Shown piece after piece: positions 8,938 through 20,581 of a stretch of 54,912 nt of DNA. The notes beneath the pieces were generated by a model, which worked only from the letters and a program-made list of their open reading frames with translations, did no database searches and was not told the origin of the DNA. The stretch is from positions 1-54,912 of the forward strand of contig CAMCHP010000010.1 in the NCBI GenBank assembly GCA_945874695.1, read 5' to 3'. Source of the DNA: Chryseobacterium gleum (GTDB lineage Bacteria; Bacteroidota; Bacteroidia; Flavobacteriales_D; Sanyastnellaceae). Every line of letters begins with the position of its first letter. Position 1 is the first letter of the stretch. Made by a program: the position numbers and the translations under genes.

Positions 8938-9105
8938 ATGTTCGGATTATTTAAAAAAGACCCCCTGGCGAAGTTGCAAAAGCAACACCGTCACCTGCTC
9001 GCAGAATCATTTCGCTTGAGCAAAATCGACCGTAAAAAGTCAGATGAACTGATGGCGCAAGCCGATGCGATTGAGCAAGAAATCGCCAAACTCACCCACT
9101 CATGA
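8938..9105 (+). CDS. Lacal_2735-family small protein
   Basis: A 55-residue ORF starting MFGLFKKDPLAKLQKQHRHL and ending EQEIAKLTHS. The FGLFKK start, the LQKQ.R.L..E...LS..DRKKSDEL segment and the closing helix match the small conserved Lacal_2735 family of flavobacteria. It looks like a short, charged helical protein with no signal peptide or membrane segment. Its TGA overlaps the ATG of the SDR gene (ATGA), so it is the first gene of a three-gene coupled unit. Function is unknown. Confidence 0.85.
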   Translation: MFGLFKKDPLAKLQKQHRHLLAESFRLSKIDRKKSDELMAQADAIEQEIAKLTHS

Positions 9106-9797
9106 GTACCATTGCAGTAATCGGCGATAGCCGCGGTATTGGTGCTGCATTGCGCCTACAACTTCTCGAACAAGGGCATTCCGTCGTGGGTGTGTCACGC
9201 TCTGGGAGCGGATTCACTCATCCGCGATACAGCGAGATGCTGCACGATGCGGTAGCTTCAGCGGTTGATTTGAGCGCCTCCGCAGAGGTGCTTGACGGAT
9301 TGGTTTACTGCCCAGGCAGCATCACCCTCAAACCGTTCACCTCGCTGCGTGAAGAGCATGTAATGCACGATCTGCGGGTGAATTATCTTGGGGCGTTTTT
9401 GAACATTCAACAAAACCTCAAGCTGCTGAAAAAGAGCGCTGCACCTTCGATCGTACTCTTTAGTACAGTAGCTGTTGGTTCAGGGATGCCGTTTCACAGC
9501 TCGATCTCGGGTGCAAAAGCAGCGGTAGAAGGATTAACCCGATCGCTTGCAGCCGAGCTCTCACCGCTCATTCGCGTGAATGCAATTGCACCGTCGCTGA
9601 CTGACACGTCACTGGCTGAACCACTTTTGAACAACGAGAAAAAGCAAGAAGCTGCAGCCTTGCGCCATCCCCTGAAGCGGGTCGGAACGGCCGAAGAGCT
9701 TGCGGGTGCTGCGGCATTTCTGTTAAGTCCGGCTGCCGGCTGGATGACCGGACAAATCATAGGTGTCGATGGGGGCATGTCAACTTTAAGGATATGA
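9102..9797 (+). CDS. Short-chain dehydrogenase/reductase (SDR)
   Basis: A 231-residue classical SDR. The N-terminal nucleotide-binding turn is IGDSRGIGAAL (about 7-17). Further on are an LVYCPGS segment in place of NNAG, a catalytic serine region VLFSTVAVGSGMPFHSSISGAKAAVEGL in which the usual Tyr of YxxxK is replaced by Ser (SISGAK), the PG-like APSLTDT and the C-terminal GWMTGQIIGVDGG. The missing catalytic Tyr is notable and may mean altered or lost oxidoreductase activity. The gene overlaps the genes on both sides by ATGA. Similar SDRs are known near photolyase and flavin-reductase genes in flavobacteria, which fits the local context. Confidence 0.9.
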   Translation: MSTIAVIGDSRGIGAALRLQLLEQGHSVVGVSRSGSGFTHPRYSEMLHDAVASAVDLSASAEVLDGLVYCPGSITLKPFTSLREEHVMHDLRVNYLGAFLNIQQNLKLLKKSAAPSIVLFSTVAVGSGMPFHSSISGAKAAVEGLTRSLAAELSPLIRVNAIAPSLTDTSLAEPLLNNEKKQEAAALRHPLKRVGTAEELAGAAAFLLSPAAGWMTGQIIGVDGGMSTLRI

Positions 9798-10423
9798 GTA
9801 TCAAACGCTTTGAAATCGACGATATCGATGCCTTGCCGCAACGGTTTCGGGCTGCTTTCATGAACAGCGTGAGCGGCTTCAAGAGTGCGAATGTAATCGG
9901 CACGGTTGACACGCAAGGAAACACCAATTTGAGCATCGTGAGTTCAGTGGTGCATCTGGGTTCTAACCCGCCGCTGCTCGGCTTTGTGCAACGTCCGCCC
10001 TCCGTTGAGCGGCACACCTATGATAATATTCTCGCTACGAGATCATATACCATCAACCATGTGCACCACGATTGGGTGGCGAAAGCGCATCAAACAAGTG
10101 CGCGTTACCCTGCTGAGGTTAGTGAGTTTGATGCTGTCGGCCTAACGGCCGGATACCGTGAAAATTTCGTGGCACCGCTGGTCGAAGAGGCGCGTATTCG
10201 GATGGGTATGCGTTTGATTCGCGATCTTCCCATTGAAGAAAACGGCACCCGTTTGATGATCGGTCAGGTGGTTTGGATCGAAATTCCAGATGAGGTTTTG
10301 GCCGAAGACGGTTATGTTGACCTGGAGTCAGCAGGCACAGTTACCATTTCAGGTTTAGATGCCTATCACAGCACCCAGCGTTTGGCGCGCTTGCCCTATG
10401 CGAAGGTGGGACAAGAAAGCTAA
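9794..10423 (+). CDS. Flavin reductase-like FMN-binding protein
   Basis: A 209-residue protein of the flavin-reductase-like split-barrel family (VIGTVDTQGNTNLSIVSSVVHLGSNPPLLGFVQRPPS, then YTINHVHHDWVAKAH). Such proteins bind FMN and reduce it, or use it as cofactor. Its ATG overlaps the SDR stop. It contains one copy of the palindromic repeat at 10135-10155, read as VGLTAGY. Together with the SDR it could act in cofactor or pigment redox chemistry; reduced flavin is also the cofactor of the photolyases encoded 8 kb away, which is inference. Confidence 0.88.
   Translation: MSIKRFEIDDIDALPQRFRAAFMNSVSGFKSANVIGTVDTQGNTNLSIVSSVVHLGSNPPLLGFVQRPPSVERHTYDNILATRSYTINHVHHDWVAKAHQTSARYPAEVSEFDAVGLTAGYRENFVAPLVEEARIRMGMRLIRDLPIEENGTRLMIGQVVWIEIPDEVLAEDGYVDLESAGTVTISGLDAYHSTQRLARLPYAKVGQES
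10135..10155 (+). repeat. Palindromic repeat copy (in flavin reductase gene)
   Basis: Arms CGGCC (10138-10142) and GGCCG (10147-10151) around loop TAAC, followed by GATA. Sense orientation within the gene. Confidence 0.75.
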
Positions 10424-10768: not shown

Positions 10769-13180
10769 TTACCGCACCACAATCACACTGCCGGTAAGCC
10801 GCTTCACGTTCGCCTCAAATCCCTCCATCTCGAGCACCCACACGTAAACGCCGTCGGGTGAGTAATGCGCACCGCCATTCACTGAGCCGTTCCAGAATTC
10901 GTCGGCGCGATCGGTGAAAAACACTTCTTCACCCCACCGATTGAAGACCCGAAAGGTGAATTCTTTCACGCCGATGAGCGAGAAATTGAATACATCATTC
11001 AGCCCATCATTGTCGGGGGTAAACACGTTCGGAACATAAGCGGTCATGAACGGTGGTAATACCTGACGACTTTGCGCTACACACCCCTGTTCACTGGTTA
11101 CCGTGAGTGTGACGTAGGTCGTAAATGACAAGTCACTGTACGTATGCGTCGGATCAATCTCAATGCTGGTTGCGCCATCACCAAACGACCAGAAATTGCT
11201 GTCGTTATTGAATGAGAGGTTGGTAAAGGCAACCTCAGAAATGCCGATGTAATCAAAACTAAAGTCTGCTGCAACCCGGTACACGAACACCGTAATTTCT
11301 TCTTCATAAGTTTCTCCGCAACCGTTAGTGATCGTGTATAGATAGGTACGATCGGCACCCGGACCCACGGTGTTGCTCCACGAAGTGCTGCCATCGTGCT
11401 CCCATAAAATAGTGTGCGGACCGTATCCGCCTTCCAATGAAACCGTCAGTGGAAGGAGCGCACCGAAGCACATTTCAGGATCAATCGGCGCAGTAATTTC
11501 CAAAGGAGGGTGATCAACTAGCAACAAATCAATGGGTTGAACGGTCACCAAATTGCAGGCATCGGTGATTACGAAATCAATGACCGTATTTTCGCTTACC
11601 CATACATCCACGTTTTGCATGTCACTCACGGTCGTGCCATCGAGCACCCATTCAAAGGTATAAGGCTGATACCCACCTCCAACCATAGGTTGCAACGCTT
11701 GAAAGCCCGGGCAGTTCAATAGCTCCAGCTCGAGCATTACCTCAATCGGATCAGGTATCGGAACCACAACCGTGTGCGTTGTCGATTCTTCAATGCCGCA
11801 TGCGTCAACCACGGTTAGGGTCACTGTTTCAGTCACGGCAAAACCGCCAACGTGTTCAGCTTCAGTGCTTCCCGTGCTCCATGCGTAAGTGTAGGGTTCA
11901 ACGCCACCCAATACAGTCGATTCAATGGTAATGACTTCGCTCGGACAATCAGGCTGCGGACCGCTGGCTGAAATATCCAACGCTTCATCACTCAAGAAAA
12001 GCGAAAAAGTTGAAGCCTCGCCATTGCAACCCGAGGCAATCACCTCGATAATGAGCTCCTCCAATCCCTCCAAAACCCCATCAACGATAGGGTTCGCAAA
12101 AAACGATACCGTGTTCTCCCCGGCAGGAAACGTAATGGATGTGGGCAAAGGTTCGAAGTCGAGTTGGGCATCAGCCGTGCCGTAGTAATTGATGGTCAAA
12201 TCGAAGGCCTCGGCGGTGTTTCCGACGCGTTCAAAGGTGATTTCAGCCCCTCCGCAATTTTCGTGAATGGTATTATCGTCGATAGTGTTGGTGAGATTGG
12301 CCGAAATGAGAATGCCCGGACTGTCAAAGCTGCCTTGTTCTAAGAATACAGCCGAATCCCAAGCCGTATCGCCTCCGTCGGCCAAGGCGATTTTGATGTG
12401 GTACATGCCATTGCAAATCACATCGGCTTGCGCCGTAAGCACCACGGTTAATCCATCAAATTGAATCGATTGCGGCGTAACCCCGACTGTGTTGTCAATG
12501 AAGTACGCAGCGTTTTGATTCCAATCGGGCGAAACGTCGATGCAATTTTGTACAATGCCCGACGTGCCCACATTTCCGTTGTTGACGGTATTGATAGTAA
12601 CCGGGATGTCGGTGTCTGGAATGCGCGCGAGATTGATGGCATTTTGGCTGAACGGACCGTTGATGCCAGGGCCACTGAGGAAGAATCCGAAAGCATCATT
12701 GACACTGCCACATACAAACTCGTTGTATTCTTCCGATGCGAAAACGTAATCAAATTGAATCGACTCTCCCAAAGCGATGAAATCAAATTCAAGAATTACA
12801 GCATCGTGGGTAGCAAAACCTGAAACCAACGTCAAATCGGGGTCGCCCGCGCCAAAATTTCCACCGCCTAAGGTTCCACTGCCTTCATCATTCCCACCTG
12901 AACCCACACCATCACCGCCGGTTTCAGCCAAATTTACGTTGCCCGAACCAAGGATCACGCCGCCAGCCATGCCCACATTGGAGTTCACGCCGATGAAGCT
13001 GCCAATCTGATCCGGATTTCCCGAAAATTGAACATTGAACACTTGAACTCCATTTCCTAGTAAGATTTCTAGCGCTTGCTCAGGCGTAGTGGTGTTGTCG
13101 ACATTGATTTGCGCACGCCCAACGGCAGCGCAACTCACGACGAAAGAGAAAATAAACAACAGACGTCTCAATACAATCAT
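10769..13180 (-). CDS. T9SS type B secreted adhesin-like protein with choice-of-anchor L and PKD domains
   Basis: An 803-residue exported protein from MIVLRRLLFIFSF; an upstream start at 13204 would add eight residues before the signal peptide. After a Sec signal (cleavage near GRAQ) comes a choice-of-anchor L domain (about 15-260: TTPEQALEILLGNGVQVFNVQ, GVILGSGN, FVFASEEYNEFV). Then follow several Ig-like/SprB-like repeats, a PKD domain (NFWSFGDGATSIEIDPTHTYSD, about 675-730) and a C-terminal gliding-motility-associated type B sorting domain (YVPNVFTPDNDGLND, FNRWGEEVF, SPDGVYVW). The protein should be exported by Sec, pass the outer membrane through the T9SS and be displayed or released. 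Likely an adhesin or surface-layer protein; the ligand is unknown. Confidence 0.92.
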   Translation of the reverse strand: MIVLRRLLFIFSFVVSCAAVGRAQINVDNTTTPEQALEILLGNGVQVFNVQFSGNPDQIGSFIGVNSNVGMAGGVILGSGNVNLAETGGDGVGSGGNDEGSGTLGGGNFGAGDPDLTLVSGFATHDAVILEFDFIALGESIQFDYVFASEEYNEFVCGSVNDAFGFFLSGPGINGPFSQNAINLARIPDTDIPVTINTVNNGNVGTSGIVQNCIDVSPDWNQNAAYFIDNTVGVTPQSIQFDGLTVVLTAQADVICNGMYHIKIALADGGDTAWDSAVFLEQGSFDSPGILISANLTNTIDDNTIHENCGGAEITFERVGNTAEAFDLTINYYGTADAQLDFEPLPTSITFPAGENTVSFFANPIVDGVLEGLEELIIEVIASGCNGEASTFSLFLSDEALDISASGPQPDCPSEVITIESTVLGGVEPYTYAWSTGSTEAEHVGGFAVTETVTLTVVDACGIEESTTHTVVVPIPDPIEVMLELELLNCPGFQALQPMVGGGYQPYTFEWVLDGTTVSDMQNVDVWVSENTVIDFVITDACNLVTVQPIDLLLVDHPPLEITAPIDPEMCFGALLPLTVSLEGGYGPHTILWEHDGSTSWSNTVGPGADRTYLYTITNGCGETYEEEITVFVYRVAADFSFDYIGISEVAFTNLSFNNDSNFWSFGDGATSIEIDPTHTYSDLSFTTYVTLTVTSEQGCVAQSRQVLPPFMTAYVPNVFTPDNDGLNDVFNFSLIGVKEFTFRVFNRWGEEVFFTDRADEFWNGSVNGGAHYSPDGVYVWVLEMEGFEANVKRLTGSVIVVR

Positions 13181-13351
13181 ACAAAGCAGCTTGTGCGCAA
13201 GCACAACGGTTAGTTTTGGAGAAACTCAATTCAGTCCCTAAAGATGACGATTTATTCTGATCAATCTGTTTGCCCTGCACGTAAAGAACGCCCGAAACTT
13301 GGAAAGGGTTGCGTCAATTTGCTTGTATTCCTAAAGGTATAAACCGTGTTG

Positions 13352-14192: not shown

Positions 14193-14229
14193 AGGGGTTA
14201 TGTTAATCCTTCATTACAGGGGGCTAAGG

Positions 14230-14252
14230 TTTTCGGCCTAAACGGCCGGATG
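14230..14252 (+). repeat. Palindromic repeat copy (intergenic, upstream of cutC)
   Basis: TTTT, arm CGGCC (14234-14238), loop TAAAC, arm GGCCG (14244-14248), GATG. Identical in sequence to the copy at 33250-33272, which is inside a gene. Confidence 0.8.
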
Positions 14253-14293
14253 GGGGACAAGCAGATTTGGTATGCGCGGTGATTTCAGCGCGC

Positions 14294-15193
14294 CTACAAA
14301 AACCTGATTTGCAGATTTAAATTGAAGAAAAGGCTTTCATTTTTTGAATAAATCATACCAAACCCGTGTCTGGTGCTACTTGCTGTTTCAAGCTTGGTAT
14401 TGTTGAACAAATAGTTCTCAAAGTCGTTTCGGTTGTAGACGTGGTAGCACAAGATTTCCCCGTCTTTTTTGACCACTAAATATCCGCCCGTGGCGTCGAG
14501 TTCTCCAGTCCAAACTTTCGAAGGCATCATCCCAAGTGCAACATCCGTTAAAAAGCGCTTTATTTTATATGCATAGAAGGAGTGTGAGAACTGCGTATCG
14601 TAACCTAGCGGATTTTCTTGATTCAAATGTTCGGTTAAAGCCCGCATTGAGCTTTGGGTACTGGTATAAAATTGCTTCAACAGTTCAGCGAGCAGATTTG
14701 GCAACAAGCTGTCAATGAGTGTGAGGTTATTTTTGAAGATGTCTTGTTCGAGCGCATGGAATTTTAACGAGCCGCCAAGCTTTTTGATCGCCTCCAAGCG
14801 GTCTTTAATTTTACTTCGAGAGTCAATGGCATTGATTCGCTCAATGTCAATAACCGTGCCTTCAAACCCTTCAATTTGAAAAATGAAATTGGTTGTTTTG
14901 CCTGCGTTTAGTAAAGTTGAATCGCTCCCGACTTGCGATTTAATGCTAAACCCGAGCTCAGCTGCTTGATTAATTTGTGGGTCGTGGATGACGATGGTAA
15001 TTTCAGACTCAGTGCTTGGCTTTTCTTTTAGCGTAGTGCAGTTTATTGAATTGATAAACGCTTGCCTGTCTTCGATTGTCTTGAACGCAAACCTCTTGTG
15101 GTGTTTCGGCCTTTCCTGTGCAATCAAAGGTTTACCTTCATGGGCTTTAGGCGCATGAGCCGTGCCAAATATTGCATGTACGGTGTGGTGCAT
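14294..15193 (-). CDS. HpaII-family type II restriction endonuclease, apparently truncated at the N-terminus
   Basis: A 299-residue protein. The body from about residue 65 matches the HpaII family: ITIVIHDPQINQAAELGFSI followed by KSQVGSDSTLLNAGKTTNF, and the C-terminal GGYLVVKKDGEILCYHVYNR, LETASSTRHGFGMIY and NLNLQIRFL. HpaII cleaves CCGG. The first ~35 residues (MHHTVHAIFGTAHAPKAHEG) do not look like the family, whose members are about 350 residues and begin with a GNKGEWSE-type motif I cannot find here. The same frame stays open for 56 more codons upstream to a TGA but offers no ATG, GTG or TTG. I read this as a 5'-truncated, possibly inactive nuclease. No cognate CCGG methylase is visible. 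The gene is A+T-richer than the flanking core genes. Confidence 0.8.
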   Translation of the reverse strand: MHHTVHAIFGTAHAPKAHEGKPLIAQERPKHHKRFAFKTIEDRQAFINSINCTTLKEKPSTESEITIVIHDPQINQAAELGFSIKSQVGSDSTLLNAGKTTNFIFQIEGFEGTVIDIERINAIDSRSKIKDRLEAIKKLGGSLKFHALEQDIFKNNLTLIDSLLPNLLAELLKQFYTSTQSSMRALTEHLNQENPLGYDTQFSHSFYAYKIKRFLTDVALGMMPSKVWTGELDATGGYLVVKKDGEILCYHVYNRNDFENYLFNNTKLETASSTRHGFGMIYSKNESLFFNLNLQIRFL

Positions 15194-15311
15194 GAGGGTA
15201 GTTTTTTTAGTATCAACGGGGAAGATATAAAGAGATATGAACCTTTTTAATTTTTCAAAGTCATTGTTAATTACTTCTTGAGAATCGATTTGCGAAATTG
15301 ATTTTTGGCTG

Positions 15312-15319
15312 TAGATTTG
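15312..15319 (+). promoter_or_regulatory. Possible -7 box (TAGATTTG) of the methyltransferase gene
   Basis: TAGATTTG lies 31 nt before the ATG at 15351, in the divergent gap between the two restriction-modification genes. The methyltransferase's own HTH domain could act on this region; that is inference. Confidence 0.4.
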
Positions 15320-15350
15320 TAACCCATGTGTAAGGTTATTTAACTTGGTT

Positions 15351-16589
15351 ATGAAGAAATATTTAACACTTGCCGAAGCGTCTCAAATTCTTGGGAGAAG
15401 CAAAGAAACGCTTCGTCGTTGGGACAGAGAGGGAAAGTTAATCGCAGTTCGCGATCCAATGAGTAATTACCGTGTTTATCCAAGAGAACAGGTAGAAACG
15501 CTCTTTGGTGATTTTTTCGATCAAGCGAGCCAGAATGTAGTGTCCAACTATGTAGAACCTCATAACGACTACACAGTTTTGGAATTGTTTGCTGGGGCAG
15601 GTGGACTAGCTGTGGGCTTAGAAAGAGCAGGTTTAAATTGCGTAGCTTTAAACGAGATAGACAAATGGGCGTGTCAAACATTGCGGAGAAACCGTCCAAC
15701 TTGGAACGTTCTTGAAGGCGATGTACGATCTTTTGATTTTTCGGAATACAAGAATTTGGTGGACGTAGTTACGGGTGGTTTTCCTTGTCAAGCATTCAGC
15801 TATGCCGGAAAAAAGTTGGGGTTGGCGGATGCGAGGGGGACACTGTTTTACGAATTTGCACGGGTGGTTCAAGAAGTAAATCCACCACTCTGTATAGGTG
15901 AAAATGTTCGTGGTCTTCTGAGCCACGACAATGGCAAGACTCTACAGGGTATGATCTCGATTCTTGACGAAATAGGATATAATGTGGTTCCGGTACAAGT
16001 ATTGAAGGCTATTAATTTTCGAGTTCCTCAAAAACGGGAAAGGCTTATACTTGTGGGGGTTCGAAAGGATATTGATTTGAATTATGAATATCCGAAAGCA
16101 CATGCGAAAATATATAATTTGCGCGATGCCTTGACTGCAGGAGATCTCTATGGGACGGATGTGCCAAAATCTGTTGGAGCAAAGTATCCTCAGAGTAAGA
16201 AAGCCATTTTAGAGTTAGTTCCTCAAAAGGGATATTGGAGAGATTTGCCACTTGATGTCCAAAAAGAATTTATGGGGGGCAGTTTTTACTTGGGAGGAGG
16301 TAAAACAGGAATTGCACGTAGGATTGGATGGGATGAACCTTGCCTTACGCTGACGTGCAGCCCAGCTCAGAAACAAACCGAAAGGTGTCATCCAGAAGAG
16401 ACAAGACCTTTCACCGTTCGCGAATATGCCCGAATCCAAACATTCCCTGATGATTGGCAATTCGAAGGCTCAATGGCTCAGCAATACAAGCAAATTGGAA
16501 ATGCAGTCCCTGTGAACTTAGGAACGGAAGTCGGCCATTCTATTGTGAAGTTTTTGAACCAGTATTATAACTTATCAAAACCAAGATAA
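15351..16589 (+). CDS. DNA cytosine-C5 methyltransferase (Eco47II/Sau96I type) with N-terminal MerR-like HTH
   Basis: A 412-residue enzyme. Residues 1-55 (MKKYLTLAEASQILGRSKET, RRWDREGKLIAVRD, YRVYPREQVETLF) form a MerR/excisionase-type helix-turn-helix that is not part of the catalytic fold. The methylase follows: motif I ELFAGAGGLAVGLE (about 78), motif IV GGFPCQAFS with catalytic Cys near 146, motif VI ENVRGLL, motif VIII QKRERL, the target-recognition segment GYWRDLPLDVQKEF / SFYLGGGKTGIARRI, and motif X QYKQIGNAVPVN. The pattern is that of GGNCC/GGWCC methylases, so it should protect against the Eco47II-like nuclease next door. I chose ATG 15351; a TTG at 15345 is possible. The gene overlaps the convergent nuclease gene by 25 bp. 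Confidence 0.92.
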   Translation: MKKYLTLAEASQILGRSKETLRRWDREGKLIAVRDPMSNYRVYPREQVETLFGDFFDQASQNVVSNYVEPHNDYTVLELFAGAGGLAVGLERAGLNCVALNEIDKWACQTLRRNRPTWNVLEGDVRSFDFSEYKNLVDVVTGGFPCQAFSYAGKKLGLADARGTLFYEFARVVQEVNPPLCIGENVRGLLSHDNGKTLQGMISILDEIGYNVVPVQVLKAINFRVPQKRERLILVGVRKDIDLNYEYPKAHAKIYNLRDALTAGDLYGTDVPKSVGAKYPQSKKAILELVPQKGYWRDLPLDVQKEFMGGSFYLGGGKTGIARRIGWDEPCLTLTCSPAQKQTERCHPEETRPFTVREYARIQTFPDDWQFEGSMAQQYKQIGNAVPVNLGTEVGHSIVKFLNQYYNLSKPR

Positions 16590-17329
16590 TAGCTATAGTT
16601 CTCAAAAGTAATTTGGTTCAAAATACTCCGCTTACTAGTCTTCGTTCCTGCTTTTAGCTCCTCAAGCGCAGAATTTTCGGTTATAGCTTCATTTTTTTGG
16701 ACAGATTTAAGGTAATCATTTATCGCCACGGGCAAAGACCTATAGAGTTGCAACAACGCATCTTTTTGCCCAGATAGCAGCGCGTAAAATTGGTCTCCAG
16801 AAATCTTATAAACTCTACTATGACTGTATTCCTTACCGTTGATATCCCCGCTCCATAATTCACAAAAACTCCCTTTTGCTAATATTTGCACCCAATAACA
16901 CTTCGCTTGTTTATGATCGTCTGCATAACGGGCTAGTTTTTGGAAAAGCGCTTCAGCGGCGCTGCTATTCATGGTATTATGCTTATTCTTCACGTCAGCA
17001 AATAGAGTGTCATCTTTAGCTTTAATATCATAACCGCTCAAATTGCCGGTTTCGTAACCTAAAATACCGCCCAAAATTTGTTCGTGAAACGTTCCAATCG
17101 AGTTATTTATTGATTTGTCGATTTGCCTTAGAATCTCAGATTGAATTAGGCTTTCTTCATCAATTGCGTTAAACTGAGCGTCAAAGGTCAGTTTAATAGT
17201 ATCGACCTTGTTGGAGTATAGGTTCTTCTTGTTAATATTATTTTTTGCCTTCAGATACGCTCCATGCAAATTCGCTATGCACTGCAATAAGTGTTCATCT
17301 GAGATAAAGTTGACATACTTGTGTTTCAT
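16565..17329 (-). CDS. Eco47II-family type II restriction endonuclease
   Basis: A 254-residue nuclease matching the Eco47II family (MKHKYVNFISDEHLLQCIAN, SIGTFHEQILGGILGYETG, GYDIKAKDDTLFADVKNKHN, CYWVQILAKGSFCELWSGDI). The D...DVKNK segment near residue 130 fits a PD-(D/E)xK catalytic core. Eco47II recognises GGNCC and relatives cut GGWCC. Its 3' end overlaps the 3' end of the convergent methylase gene by 25 bp, an arrangement that also gives antisense transcripts. Unlike its neighbours it has a strong Shine-Dalgarno (GGAGG, 6 nt before the ATG), which suggests origin outside the Bacteroidota. Confidence 0.92.
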   Translation of the reverse strand: MKHKYVNFISDEHLLQCIANLHGAYLKAKNNINKKNLYSNKVDTIKLTFDAQFNAIDEESLIQSEILRQIDKSINNSIGTFHEQILGGILGYETGNLSGYDIKAKDDTLFADVKNKHNTMNSSAAEALFQKLARYADDHKQAKCYWVQILAKGSFCELWSGDINGKEYSHSRVYKISGDQFYALLSGQKDALLQLYRSLPVAINDYLKSVQKNEAITENSALEELKAGTKTSKRSILNQITFENYSYYLGFDKL

Positions 17330-17335
17330 TCAATT

Positions 17336-17340
17336 CCTCC
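17336..17340 (-). promoter_or_regulatory. Shine-Dalgarno GGAGG of the Eco47II-like gene
   Basis: Minus strand reads GGAGG, AATTGA, ATG. Strong SD sequences are otherwise almost absent in this window. Confidence 0.7.
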
Positions 17341-17354
17341 GCGATTGACAGCGC

Positions 17355-17362
17355 TAAAGATA
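17355..17362 (-). promoter_or_regulatory. Possible -7 box (TATCTTTA) of the Eco47II-like gene
   Basis: TATCTTTA on the minus strand, 25 nt before the ATG. One base off the TAnnTTTG consensus. Confidence 0.4.
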
Positions 17363-17585
17363 GATAAAAGTCAACTTCCTATTCAGTTAGAAAAACTTGG
17401 ATTGTGCGCTTTAAACAACCAAAGTAATGAGTACACGATGGTGAACTCTCGAATCAAGTCAATGAGACAAAAGAATTACGCCATAGTCAGTCGGTGTGAA
17501 ATAGCAAGGCTTAAGCCAGTTCAACAGCTTCTATTCCAAGCTTATCAAATCTGCCTCACGCCAGACGCCCCAACACGTTACACTG

Positions 17586-17628: not shown

Positions 17629-17766
17629 GTGAAAAAACAACACCTCCCTTCCAAAACCTGCGTCACCTGCCACAAGCCCTTCAACTGGCGCAAGAAATGG
17701 GAGAAGGTGTGGGATGATGTCAAATACTGCAGCGAACGTTGCCGAAGAAACCGCGCGACGCCATGA
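17629..17766 (+). CDS. DUF2256 small zinc-ribbon-like protein
   Basis: A 45-residue ORF starting with [48 protein letters not shown]. The CxxC...[19 protein letters not shown] pattern is diagnostic of DUF2256, probably binding one metal through four cysteines (CVTC and CSERC). Its TGA overlaps the ATG of the photolyase gene (ATGA). DUF2256 genes are typically adjacent to FeS-type cryptochrome/photolyase genes; the role is unknown. Confidence 0.9.
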
Positions 17767-19310
17767 ACCAAAAAATCAAAACGCTGCGATTCATCCTCGG
17801 CGATCAACTCAACATCAATCACCCGTGGTTCGCTGAAGGGCCAACATCCGATGTCATGTACGCCATGGCTGAAATGCACGTCGAAACCAATTACGTCGAA
17901 CACCACATCCAAAAGGTGGTGGCCTTCTTTCTCGCGATGCGCAACTTCGCCGAAACGCTGCGCCAATTGAACCACAAGGTGGTCTACCTCACCCTCGATC
18001 AAACCGACAAAAACGCTGATGTCGTCCAAATCATCTCCGCGCTGGTTGATAAGCACAATCCCGAGCAGATTGAATACTTGCTCCCCGATGAGTACCGCCT
18101 CGATCAAGCCTTCCAGCGTTTGCAGTCTGCCGTGAATATCCCCGTTGTCGCATGCGATACGCACCATTTTTATACGACCCGCGATGAACTGGCGACCTTC
18201 TTCAAAGGCAAAAAGACCTTCTTGATGGAGAACTTCTACCGGGCCATGCGAAGAAAACACGGGGTACTCATGGAGGGACCTGAACCGGTAACCGGTCGGT
18301 GGAACTACGACGAAGAAAACCGTAAAAAACTACCTCCCAAACTGCTGCCACCTCCAGCAAAGATTTACCCCAAACAGGTACACGAGCTGGTGGCGATGAT
18401 TGAACAAGCGGGGGTGAAAACGATCGGACGAATTAACGCTAACCAATTCATCTGGCCCGTCACCCGCGATGAGGCACTCGATTTACTCAACCACTTCGTA
18501 GAGCACCTGCTGCCATGCTTCGGTACCTACCAAGATGCCCTCACCACGGTCGATTGGTCGCTTTTTCACTCGCGCCTGTCGTTCGCAATGAATGTGAAAC
18601 TCATCGGTCCCAACGAGGTCGTGAACGCTGTAACTGCCCGCTGGCATGCCGATCCTAACCATGCACACATCGCACAAGCGGAGGGCTTCGTGCGGCAAAT
18701 CCTCGGCTGGCGCGAATACATGCGCGGCATCTACTGGGCCAAAATGCCCGAATTCGCAACGCTCAATTTTTTCAACCACGATCGGGCGCTTCCACAGTGG
18801 TTTTGGACGGGCGAAACGCGCATGAAATGCCTCAGCCACAGCATCAACCAATCGCTCGATTTCGCCTATGCCCACCATATTCAGCGCCTCATGGTTACAG
18901 GCAATTTCGCACTCCTGGCGGGCATCCACCCCGATGAACTCGACCGCTGGTACCTCGGCATTTACATCGATGCCATCGAATGGGTCGAAATCACCAACAC
19001 CCGCGGCATGAGCCAGTTCGCCGATGGGGGCATCGTGGGCAGCAAACCCTACGTGTCAAGCGCAAATTACCTGCACAAACAAGGCCATTATTGCGGGTCG
19101 TGTGCCTACAAACACGATGTGCGGGTGGGGGATAAGGCATGCCCTTTCAACAGTTTATACTGGCATTTTTACCAACGCAACCGTACCTTACTCGAACGCA
19201 ATCCGCGCATCGGCATGATGTACCGCACGTGGGATAAAATGGAGGCGCACCAGCAAGCCGCGCTCCTCGATCAAGCTGAATATTACCTCAACCGAATCAA
19301 CGATTTGTAA
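17763..19310 (+). CDS. FeS-type bacterial cryptochrome/(6-4) photolyase family protein
   Basis: A 515-residue member of the deoxyribodipyrimidine photolyase-related family (COG3046/PhrB-like). It starts [17 protein letters not shown], has the helical FAD domain with [38 protein letters not shown] and [20 protein letters not shown], and ends with [20 protein letters not shown]. Three cysteines there plus one upstream (MKCLSHS) fit the 4Fe-4S cluster ligands of this class. Such enzymes repair UV (6-4) photoproducts with light, or act as photoreceptors. ATG 17763 overlaps the DUF2256 stop; the last base overlaps the next ATG (TAATG). The operon is therefore translationally coupled. Confidence 0.93.
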
Positions 19311-20581
19311 TGAAACGCTCCATCATTTGGTTCAGAAACGATTTGCGCACGACCGATCACCCTGCGCTCCATCAAGCAGCGGAAAATGGACACGCAATAG
19401 TCGCCGTCTACATTTTTGACGAGCGCAATTGGCAGCCCGATCCCTACGGTTTGCCGAAAACGGGCGTACATCGCACCCAATTCTTGCTCGAAAGTGTACG
19501 CGATTTAGATGATTCGCTCGCTTCGCTCGGATGCACCCTCTTAACCGCAAAGGGTAATCCGGCCGTGATTTTGACTGACCTCGCCGCGAAGTACAATTGT
19601 TCGACGGTTTATGCAACCAAAGAACACACCCGCGAGGAAGTCGACCGCGAAGCCGAAGTGGCTGCGGTGCTGTCCCTCCAACTACTCGAGGGCCTCACAC
19701 TCATCCACCCCGATGACCTGCCGTTTGACCTCGAACGCCTGCCCGATGTCTTCACGCAGTTTCGCAACGGGGTCGAAAAACGCAGTGCGGTGCGTGCGCC
19801 GCTTCCCGAGCCTGAACAACTTCATTGTTTGGTGACTGAACGAAGCAGCTTCCCAACATTGGCCGATTTTGGATACGAAACCGCTCCATCTGATCCGCGC
19901 CAAGTACTTGCGTTCGTGGGTGGCGCCCTCCCCGCTTGGGATCGCCTCGATCACTATTTCTGGGAAACGAAAGCGCTCAGCACCTACAAAGAAACCCGAA
20001 ACGGACTCCTCGGTGCCGATTATTCGAGCAAATTCAGTCCGTGGTTGGCCAATGGCTGCATTTCACCCCGTGAAATTTGGGCCGAGGTCAAACGCTACGA
20101 GGCTGAAAACGGGGGCAATGAGAGCACGTATTGGTTGCTGTTTGAGTTGCTGTGGCGCGACTACTTTCGCTTCGTCGCCATGAAGTATGGCGATCGCATC
20201 TTCTACCGCACGGGCATCAAGCGCCAAGCGCCACGCAGCCGCAACGATGCGCGTACGTTCACGGCATGGGCCGAGGGCAACACGCCCGAACCTTTTGTGA
20301 ATGCCAATATGAAAGAGTTGGTCGCGACCGGATTCATGAGCAACCGCGGCCGGCAAAACGTGGCTAGTTATTTGGTGCACGATTTGGGCATCGACTGGCG
20401 GCGCGGAGCAGCCTTCTTTGAACACCATTTGATCGATTACGATCCGGCAAGCAACTACGGCAACTGGATTTATATCGCTGGTGTTGGCAATGACCCGCGC
20501 GAAAACCGCAAGTTCAACATCGCGCGTCAAGCTGATATGTACGACGCCGAAGGAGCGTACCAAAAAACATGGCTGGCATGA
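19310..20581 (+). CDS. Cryptochrome DASH / deoxyribodipyrimidine photolyase
   Basis: A 423-residue protein beginning SIIWFRNDLRTTDHPALH, with the DASH-type FTQFRNGVEKRSAVR segment, and the FAD-binding domain (YKETRNGLLGADYSSKFSPWLANGCIS, WLLFELLWRDYFRF, MKELVATGFMSNRGRQNVASYL, DPASNYGNWIYIAGVGNDPR). DASH proteins repair cyclobutane pyrimidine dimers, mainly in single-stranded DNA, and bind FAD plus an antenna folate. It is the third gene of the coupled operon, and its TGA overlaps the next gene by ATGA. Confidence 0.94.
   Translation: MKRSIIWFRNDLRTTDHPALHQAAENGHAIVAVYIFDERNWQPDPYGLPKTGVHRTQFLLESVRDLDDSLASLGCTLLTAKGNPAVILTDLAAKYNCSTVYATKEHTREEVDREAEVAAVLSLQLLEGLTLIHPDDLPFDLERLPDVFTQFRNGVEKRSAVRAPLPEPEQLHCLVTERSSFPTLADFGYETAPSDPRQVLAFVGGALPAWDRLDHYFWETKALSTYKETRNGLLGADYSSKFSPWLANGCISPREIWAEVKRYEAENGGNESTYWLLFELLWRDYFRFVAMKYGDRIFYRTGIKRQAPRSRNDARTFTAWAEGNTPEPFVNANMKELVATGFMSNRGRQNVASYLVHDLGIDWRRGAAFFEHHLIDYDPASNYGNWIYIAGVGNDPRENRKFNIARQADMYDAEGAYQKTWLA

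What the first reader, a model, noticed from the sequence alone, without database searches (positions are those of the whole stretch)
14294..15350. Orphan, apparently truncated HpaII-like nuclease beside a GGNCC system
The nuclease lacks the family N-terminus and no CCGG methylase is present; the neighbouring methylase has GGNCC-type motifs and would not protect CCGG. The window holds many CCGG sites, so an active enzyme would need a methylase elsewhere. The upstream in-frame 56 codons without a start codon look like a decayed 5' end.
Basis: partly seen in the sequence, partly recalled or inferred. Interest (0 to 1): 0.5.

Follow-up and report, generated by a model that had tools for sequence, protein, structure and literature searches.

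The report
Dead fragment of HpaII restriction enzyme
A bacterial chromosome carries the tail end of a CCGG-cutting enzyme without the partner that would protect the cell from it, lying beside a different and complete restriction system; it is most likely an ordinary inactive leftover rather than a new kind of system.

Summary
Window 14294-15193(-) encodes a PF09561 (HpaII) protein matching only profile positions 92-359. The N-terminus, with residues invariant in 86 of 86 aligned homologues, is missing and leaves no detectable remnant in the window. The 97%-complete assembly has one C5 methylase over the cut-off, the neighbour, and none of PF01555. The neighbour and a convergent Eco47II-family nuclease form a GGNCC-type cassette with 78-88% identical copies in three other genomes. 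The 'decayed 5' end' is not supported: HpaII homology stops at about 15079, the cassette starts at about 15300, and the 225 bp between resemble neither. An Asp invariant in 86 of 86 homologues, probably catalytic, is Glu here. In 68 of 80 relatives a methylase frame abuts the nuclease. Best reading: an inactive remnant of an imported CCGG system that lost its methylase and the nuclease's 5' end, now beside a different cassette. Truncated solitary nucleases are documented (PMC3488263). Unexplained: all five departures from near-invariant positions lie within 26 residues of the break.

The parts
14297..15079 (-). HpaII-family C-terminal part, residues 39-299 of the ORF; open frame without stop
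15002..15004 (-). codon for Glu64 where 86 of 86 aligned homologues have Asp (L003 D122), the probable catalytic metal ligand
   Evidence: catalytic role inferred
15080..15193 (-). first 38 codons of the called ORF, without HpaII similarity
15194..15304 (.). rest of a roughly 225 bp segment (15080-15304) that matches neither HpaII nor the GGNCC cassette; single copy in the assembly, no match in 113 other genomes of the family, no plasmid match
15312..15350 (+). conserved block before the methylase: TAGATTTG (-7-like) then GTAACC...GGTTA, shared with four other copies; probable promoter/operator
   Evidence: regulatory role inferred
15345..16589 (+). C5-cytosine methylase of the GGNCC type with N-terminal HTH domain (TTG at 15345 or ATG at 15351)
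16565..17329 (-). Eco47II-family restriction endonuclease, convergent with the methylase

Best explanation
The ORF is an inactive 3' remnant of a horizontally acquired HpaII-type (CCGG) restriction-modification operon. The operon's methylase and about the first 95 codons of the nuclease were removed, and their place is now taken by a short unidentified segment and a complete GGNCC-type cassette (methylase plus Eco47II-like nuclease), which is probably the working system here. Without the N-terminal segment and with the invariant Asp changed to Glu, the remnant should not cut DNA, so the cell needs no CCGG methylase. Shown: the truncation, the missing partner in the assembly, the substitutions, the neighbouring cassette. 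Inferred: lack of activity, the catalytic role of the Asp, the horizontal origin, and that arrival of the cassette and loss of the 5' part were one event or linked events.
For: Profile match only from 92 or 95. In 68 of 80 relatives a C5 methylase frame abuts or overlaps the nuclease frame; in 11 one lies 274-1494 bp upstream; in 1 none was found, the nuclease lying at the contig start (specificity of those methylases not tested). The remnant is nested in a clade of 11 rows (100/90) whose ten other loci all have a methylase frame upstream, two of them about 1 kb away. Asp invariant in 86 of 86 homologues, E here; K or R in 86 of 86, E here (two of the 86 rows are contigs fetched twice). GC 0.39-0.41 over 14297-17377 against 0.49 for the window. 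Of 399 genomes of the order 15 match the ORF; its own is the only match of its family. GGNCC is the most avoided of 16 XXNXX palindromes in a 355 kb sample (0.70).
Against: The remaining frame is clean: no stop, and 0 of 83 columns conserved at 98% or more are changed beyond residue 66, so decay is not visible in most of it. The 225 bp between the two homologies means that a one-step replacement is not shown. The AlphaFold model of the intact relative is weak in the catalytic core (pLDDT under 50 at 111-123 and 139-146) and fold matches are weak, so the role of the Asp is not proved by structure. Only PF00145 and PF01555 methylases and one M.HpaII-like query were searched in the assembly.
Confidence: 0.86

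Rival explanations
1. The C-terminal 235 residues are still selected for, as a non-cutting CCGG-binding or otherwise repurposed protein.
For: 0 of 83 near-invariant columns changed beyond residue 66 while 5 of 8 changed in residues 39-66; end branch 0.42, like the intact sister L009 at 0.38; open frame. Solitary HpaII-like proteins in Bacteroides without a found methylase, one without activity, are reported, and a change of function is suggested there (PMC3488263, section 19 read).
Against: A recent truncation gives the same picture for the distal part. No TANNTTTG on the minus strand between the ORF start and 16602 (a consensus scan only). No other lineage with this form among the relatives fetched.
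Confidence: 0.08
2. An active truncated CCGG nuclease, protected by a methylase missing from the assembly or of a family not searched.
For: Assembly is 96.99% complete in 128 contigs; CCGG is somewhat scarce (0.79 of expectation, third lowest of 16 tetramer palindromes).
Against: Missing N-terminus and changed invariant Asp; no second C5 methylase over the cut-off, no PF01555 methylase; 963 CCGG sites in the 355 kb sampled (1926 over both strands).
Confidence: 0.03
3. Assembly chimaera at the junction.
For: Unnamed draft genome in 128 contigs; sharp junctions.
Against: Genes on the two outer sides belong together: the photolyase pair (17739-20581) lies near homologues of the dehydrogenase or flavin reductase genes of 9102-10423 in 5 of 15 genomes looked at, with unequal flanks.
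Confidence: 0.03

Closest known systems
HpaII-type Type II restriction endonucleases (PF09561), as in flavobacterial HpaII-like systems
   Same: 73% protein identity to the best relative (Algoriphagus, L003) over residues 39-299; shared GFSIKS, TNF and C-terminal motifs
   Different: No N-terminal 95 residues, invariant Asp changed to Glu, no methylase partner found
'Probably truncated' solitary restriction enzymes of Ershova et al. 2012 (PMC3488263)
   Same: A solitary, shortened Type II nuclease without cognate methylase; the paper counts 99 of 272 solitary genes as likely fragments, 16 of them Type II
   Different: Here a complete R-M cassette of other specificity lies where the lost part would be
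Eco47II-type GGNCC cassettes
   Same: Neighbouring methylase and nuclease in the same convergent layout as in three other genomes
   Different: One side borders the HpaII remnant; no HpaII match around the other three copies

Membership tests
HpaII restriction endonuclease (PF09561) | Sequence match over the curated cut-off | tested here: met
   355.9 bits against 25
HpaII restriction endonuclease (PF09561) | N-terminal GEWSE.Y segment | tested here: not met
   W, second E and Y invariant in 86 of 86 homologues, absent here
HpaII restriction endonuclease (PF09561) | Invariant Asp before the GFSIKS strand | tested here: not met
   D in 86 of 86, E here
HpaII restriction endonuclease (PF09561) | SxK of GFSIKS | tested here: met
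   S83 and K85 kept
PD-(D/E)XK fold | Fold match of an intact relative | tested here: inconclusive
   Best VIA-align row HinP1I (1ynm), Z 3.1, rmsd 6.3, 170 aligned; Foldseek nothing at E<=0.001
CCGG restriction-modification system | Cognate CCGG methylase | tested here: not met
   None found in the 97% complete assembly by PF00145, PF01555 or an M.HpaII-like query
CCGG restriction-modification system | CCGG cleavage and methylation | not testable with these tools
   Needs bench work or long-read data
Eco47II-type GGNCC system (neighbour) | C5 methylase plus PF09553 nuclease side by side | tested here: met
   Of 5 plasmid relatives of the methylase looked at, 4 (H1, H2, H3, H16; 51-54% identity) lie beside an annotated Eco47II-family nuclease; in the stretch shown for H4 none was annotated
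Eco47II-type GGNCC system (neighbour) | GGNCC specificity | tested here: inconclusive
   Inferred from the nuclease family and from GGNCC avoidance; not measured

The most novel reading that the evidence does not exclude
After losing its N-terminal part, the HpaII C-terminal portion is retained by selection as a non-cutting DNA-binding protein beside the R-M cassette that took its partner's place; the cluster of substitutions next to the break would then be adaptation or disarming, not decay.
Probability: 0.07. Interest if true: 0.5.

Novelty: new member of a known kind. Interest (0 to 1): 0.2.

Why it matters
It is a readable case of one restriction system dismantled at a site now held by another, showing which parts went (methylase plus the nuclease's start). 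It also warns annotators that a strong PF09561 hit on a long open frame can be a remnant and should not by itself be taken to predict CCGG restriction.

Tried and rejected
Decayed N-terminus: rejected by profile search in six frames. Mobile repeat at the junction: one full copy in the assembly, other hits 17-21 bases at E 0.12 or more; no match in 113 other genomes of the family; no plasmid match to 14200-15345; no unusual single-strand fold (z 0.22). RNA families and tRNAs in the window: none. Viral carriage of close HpaII relatives: none confirmed (pattern-based, close relatives only). Structure: models of the intact relative and of the remnant had mean pLDDT 71 and 68, weak where it mattered; fold searches gave no decisive match, and the profile against PDB sequences gave only chance-level hits. 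My recollection that HinP1I uses an Asp and a QxK with the spacing of D122...S141-I142-K143 is recall, not a tool result; the paper is not held.

Results that weaken the reading or its controls: CCGG at 0.79 of Markov expectation is third lowest of 16 tetramer palindromes, so only weak evidence of past CCGG restriction; one relative (G405) also has few GGNCC sites (16 against 43 expected, both strands of one 17 kb stretch), so that avoidance is not specific to this genome. The cut at residue 66 was chosen after seeing the departures, so its p-value is too small by an unknown factor; with looser columns (95%, 90%) departures are 6 of 9 and 7 of 12 near the break, 1 of 103 and 3 of 119 beyond. 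The bootstrap of the tree had not settled. Three CCGG sites lie in the GGNCC cassette, none in the remnant.

Rows dropped: of 92 loci with a nuclease hit, 6 (own copies and fragments) were left out of the full-length set of 86, and 4 of these lacked the exact motif and were left out of the local model (82 rows) but put back. One search scored 80 homologues, leaving out L085-L088, L090 and L091. The structure alignments used 51 of the 77 listed relatives. Only 61 of 80 loci entered the CCGG count inside intact operons (54 sites in 143,193 bases, 0.38 per kb, flanks 1.14).

Full report
The ORF at 14294-15193 on the minus strand is a member of PF09561 by sequence, but only of its C-terminal three quarters: the Pfam match covers profile positions 92-359, and a model built here from 82 relatives starts matching at position 95. 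Homology begins at about residue 39 of the called ORF, base 15079. The first 38 codons and the open frame above the ATG show no HpaII similarity; a model of the N-terminal 94 positions found only noise in six frames of the window (best E 0.85), and a PF09561 search that included the whole assembly gave the one match at 92-359. The total open frame happens to be as long as an intact gene's (362 codons, as in L003), which may be why it looked like a decayed 5' end.

The missing part matters. In 86 aligned homologues the W, second E and Y of the GEWSE.Y segment are invariant. In the part that remains, residue 64 is D in 86 of 86 and E here; residue 62 is K or R in 86 of 86 and E here. I infer that the D is the first metal ligand of a PD-(D/E)XK site together with the SxK of GFSIKS, from its place before that strand; the model of an intact relative was too weak there to prove it, and the best solved-structure match, HinP1I, is weak (Z 3.1).

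Departures from near-invariant positions are oddly placed: 5 of 91 such columns differ, more than in any of the 80 homologues scored (0 to 4), and all five lie at residues 41-64. With the cut at 66 it is 5 of 8 near the break and 0 of 83 beyond; with looser columns a few appear beyond (1 of 103, 3 of 119, cut chosen after the fact). In a tree of the part from residue 71 on, the end branch is ordinary, 0.42 against 0.38 for its sister, and the remnant sits inside a clade of 11 whose ten other loci carry a methylase frame upstream of the nuclease. So the distal part has changed little under relaxed constraint, or is still constrained; the cluster near the break is unexplained (error-prone repair at the junction, or disarming, are guesses).

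The partner is gone. Of 80 relatives fetched from genome contigs (121 found, best 80 kept), 68 have a C5 methylase frame abutting or overlapping the nuclease frame, 11 have one 274-1494 bp upstream, and for 1, at a contig start, none was found. Here the assembly has a single PF00145 match over the cut-off; the one weaker match lies in what looks like rsmD (my recognition). There is no PF01555 methylase, and an M.HpaII-like query finds only the neighbour. The assembly is 96.99% complete, so absence is likely but not certain.

The neighbour belongs to another system. In all, 6 of 395 genomes of the phylum have PF09553. DNA homology to the three copies ends at 15258-15305 and 17329-17377 in window coordinates. 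A block with a -7-like TAGATTTG and GTAACC...GGTTA before the methylase is shared with these and a fourth, more distant copy. Of five plasmid relatives of the methylase, four lie beside an annotated Eco47II-family nuclease. GGNCC is the most avoided of 16 XXNXX palindromes in a 355 kb sample, and the cassette holds no GGNCC. A GGNCC specificity is well supported, though not measured.

The stretch 14297-17377 has GC of 0.39-0.41 against 0.49 for the window. In 5 of 15 genomes looked at, the photolyase pair of 17739-20581 lies near homologues of the dehydrogenase or flavin reductase of 9102-10423 (flanks unequal), so the island seems to have entered such a neighbourhood. Among 399 genomes of the order 15 match the ORF; besides its own, 11 have frames of 358-367 codons and 3 only short pieces, all of them outside its family.

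In print, a survey of solitary restriction enzymes counts 99 of 272 as likely fragments, 16 of them Type II, and describes solitary HpaII-like proteins in Bacteroides, one without activity (PMC3488263; abstract, passages and section 19 read). Three distant HpaII-like genes found here (L085-L087) have the lysine of the SxK changed to arginine; whether they are the published group was not tested. HpaII-like systems of flavobacterial type are reported as active or as barriers to DNA transfer (PMC8099122 and PMC11837570, passages read). For replacement of one R-M system by another I saw one search listing only, so I claim nothing about whether this arrangement is in print.

Verdict: most likely an ordinary, inactive remnant next to a cassette of another specificity; modest interest for the sharp junction and the clustered substitutions.

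Noticed in passing
15312-15350: Conserved block GTAACC...GGTTA just before the start of the GGNCC methylase, shared by five copies; with the methylase's N-terminal HTH domain this looks like self-regulation.
   Followed up: partly
L085, L086, L087: Distant HpaII-like proteins with no hit to the window's methylase in their 4 kb loci and the SxK lysine replaced by arginine, although the invariant Asp is kept: perhaps inactive full-length relatives.
   Followed up: partly
residues 41-64 of the ORF, 15002-15073: All five departures from columns conserved at 98% or more lie within 26 residues of the junction; none in the other 83 such columns.
   Followed up: partly
15080-15304: About 225 bp of unknown origin between the HpaII remnant and the GGNCC cassette.
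   Followed up: partly
17739-20581: Two adjacent photolyase-family genes, adjacent also in 12 of 15 related loci.
   Followed up: no
10769-13204: Large protein with PKD and CHU_C type IX secretion signal domains, inside the stretch that separates the photolyase pair from the dehydrogenase and flavin reductase genes.
   Followed up: no
L180, L181: Two genomes of the order with only about 45 C-terminal residues of an HpaII-like protein, one of them at a contig start.
   Followed up: no
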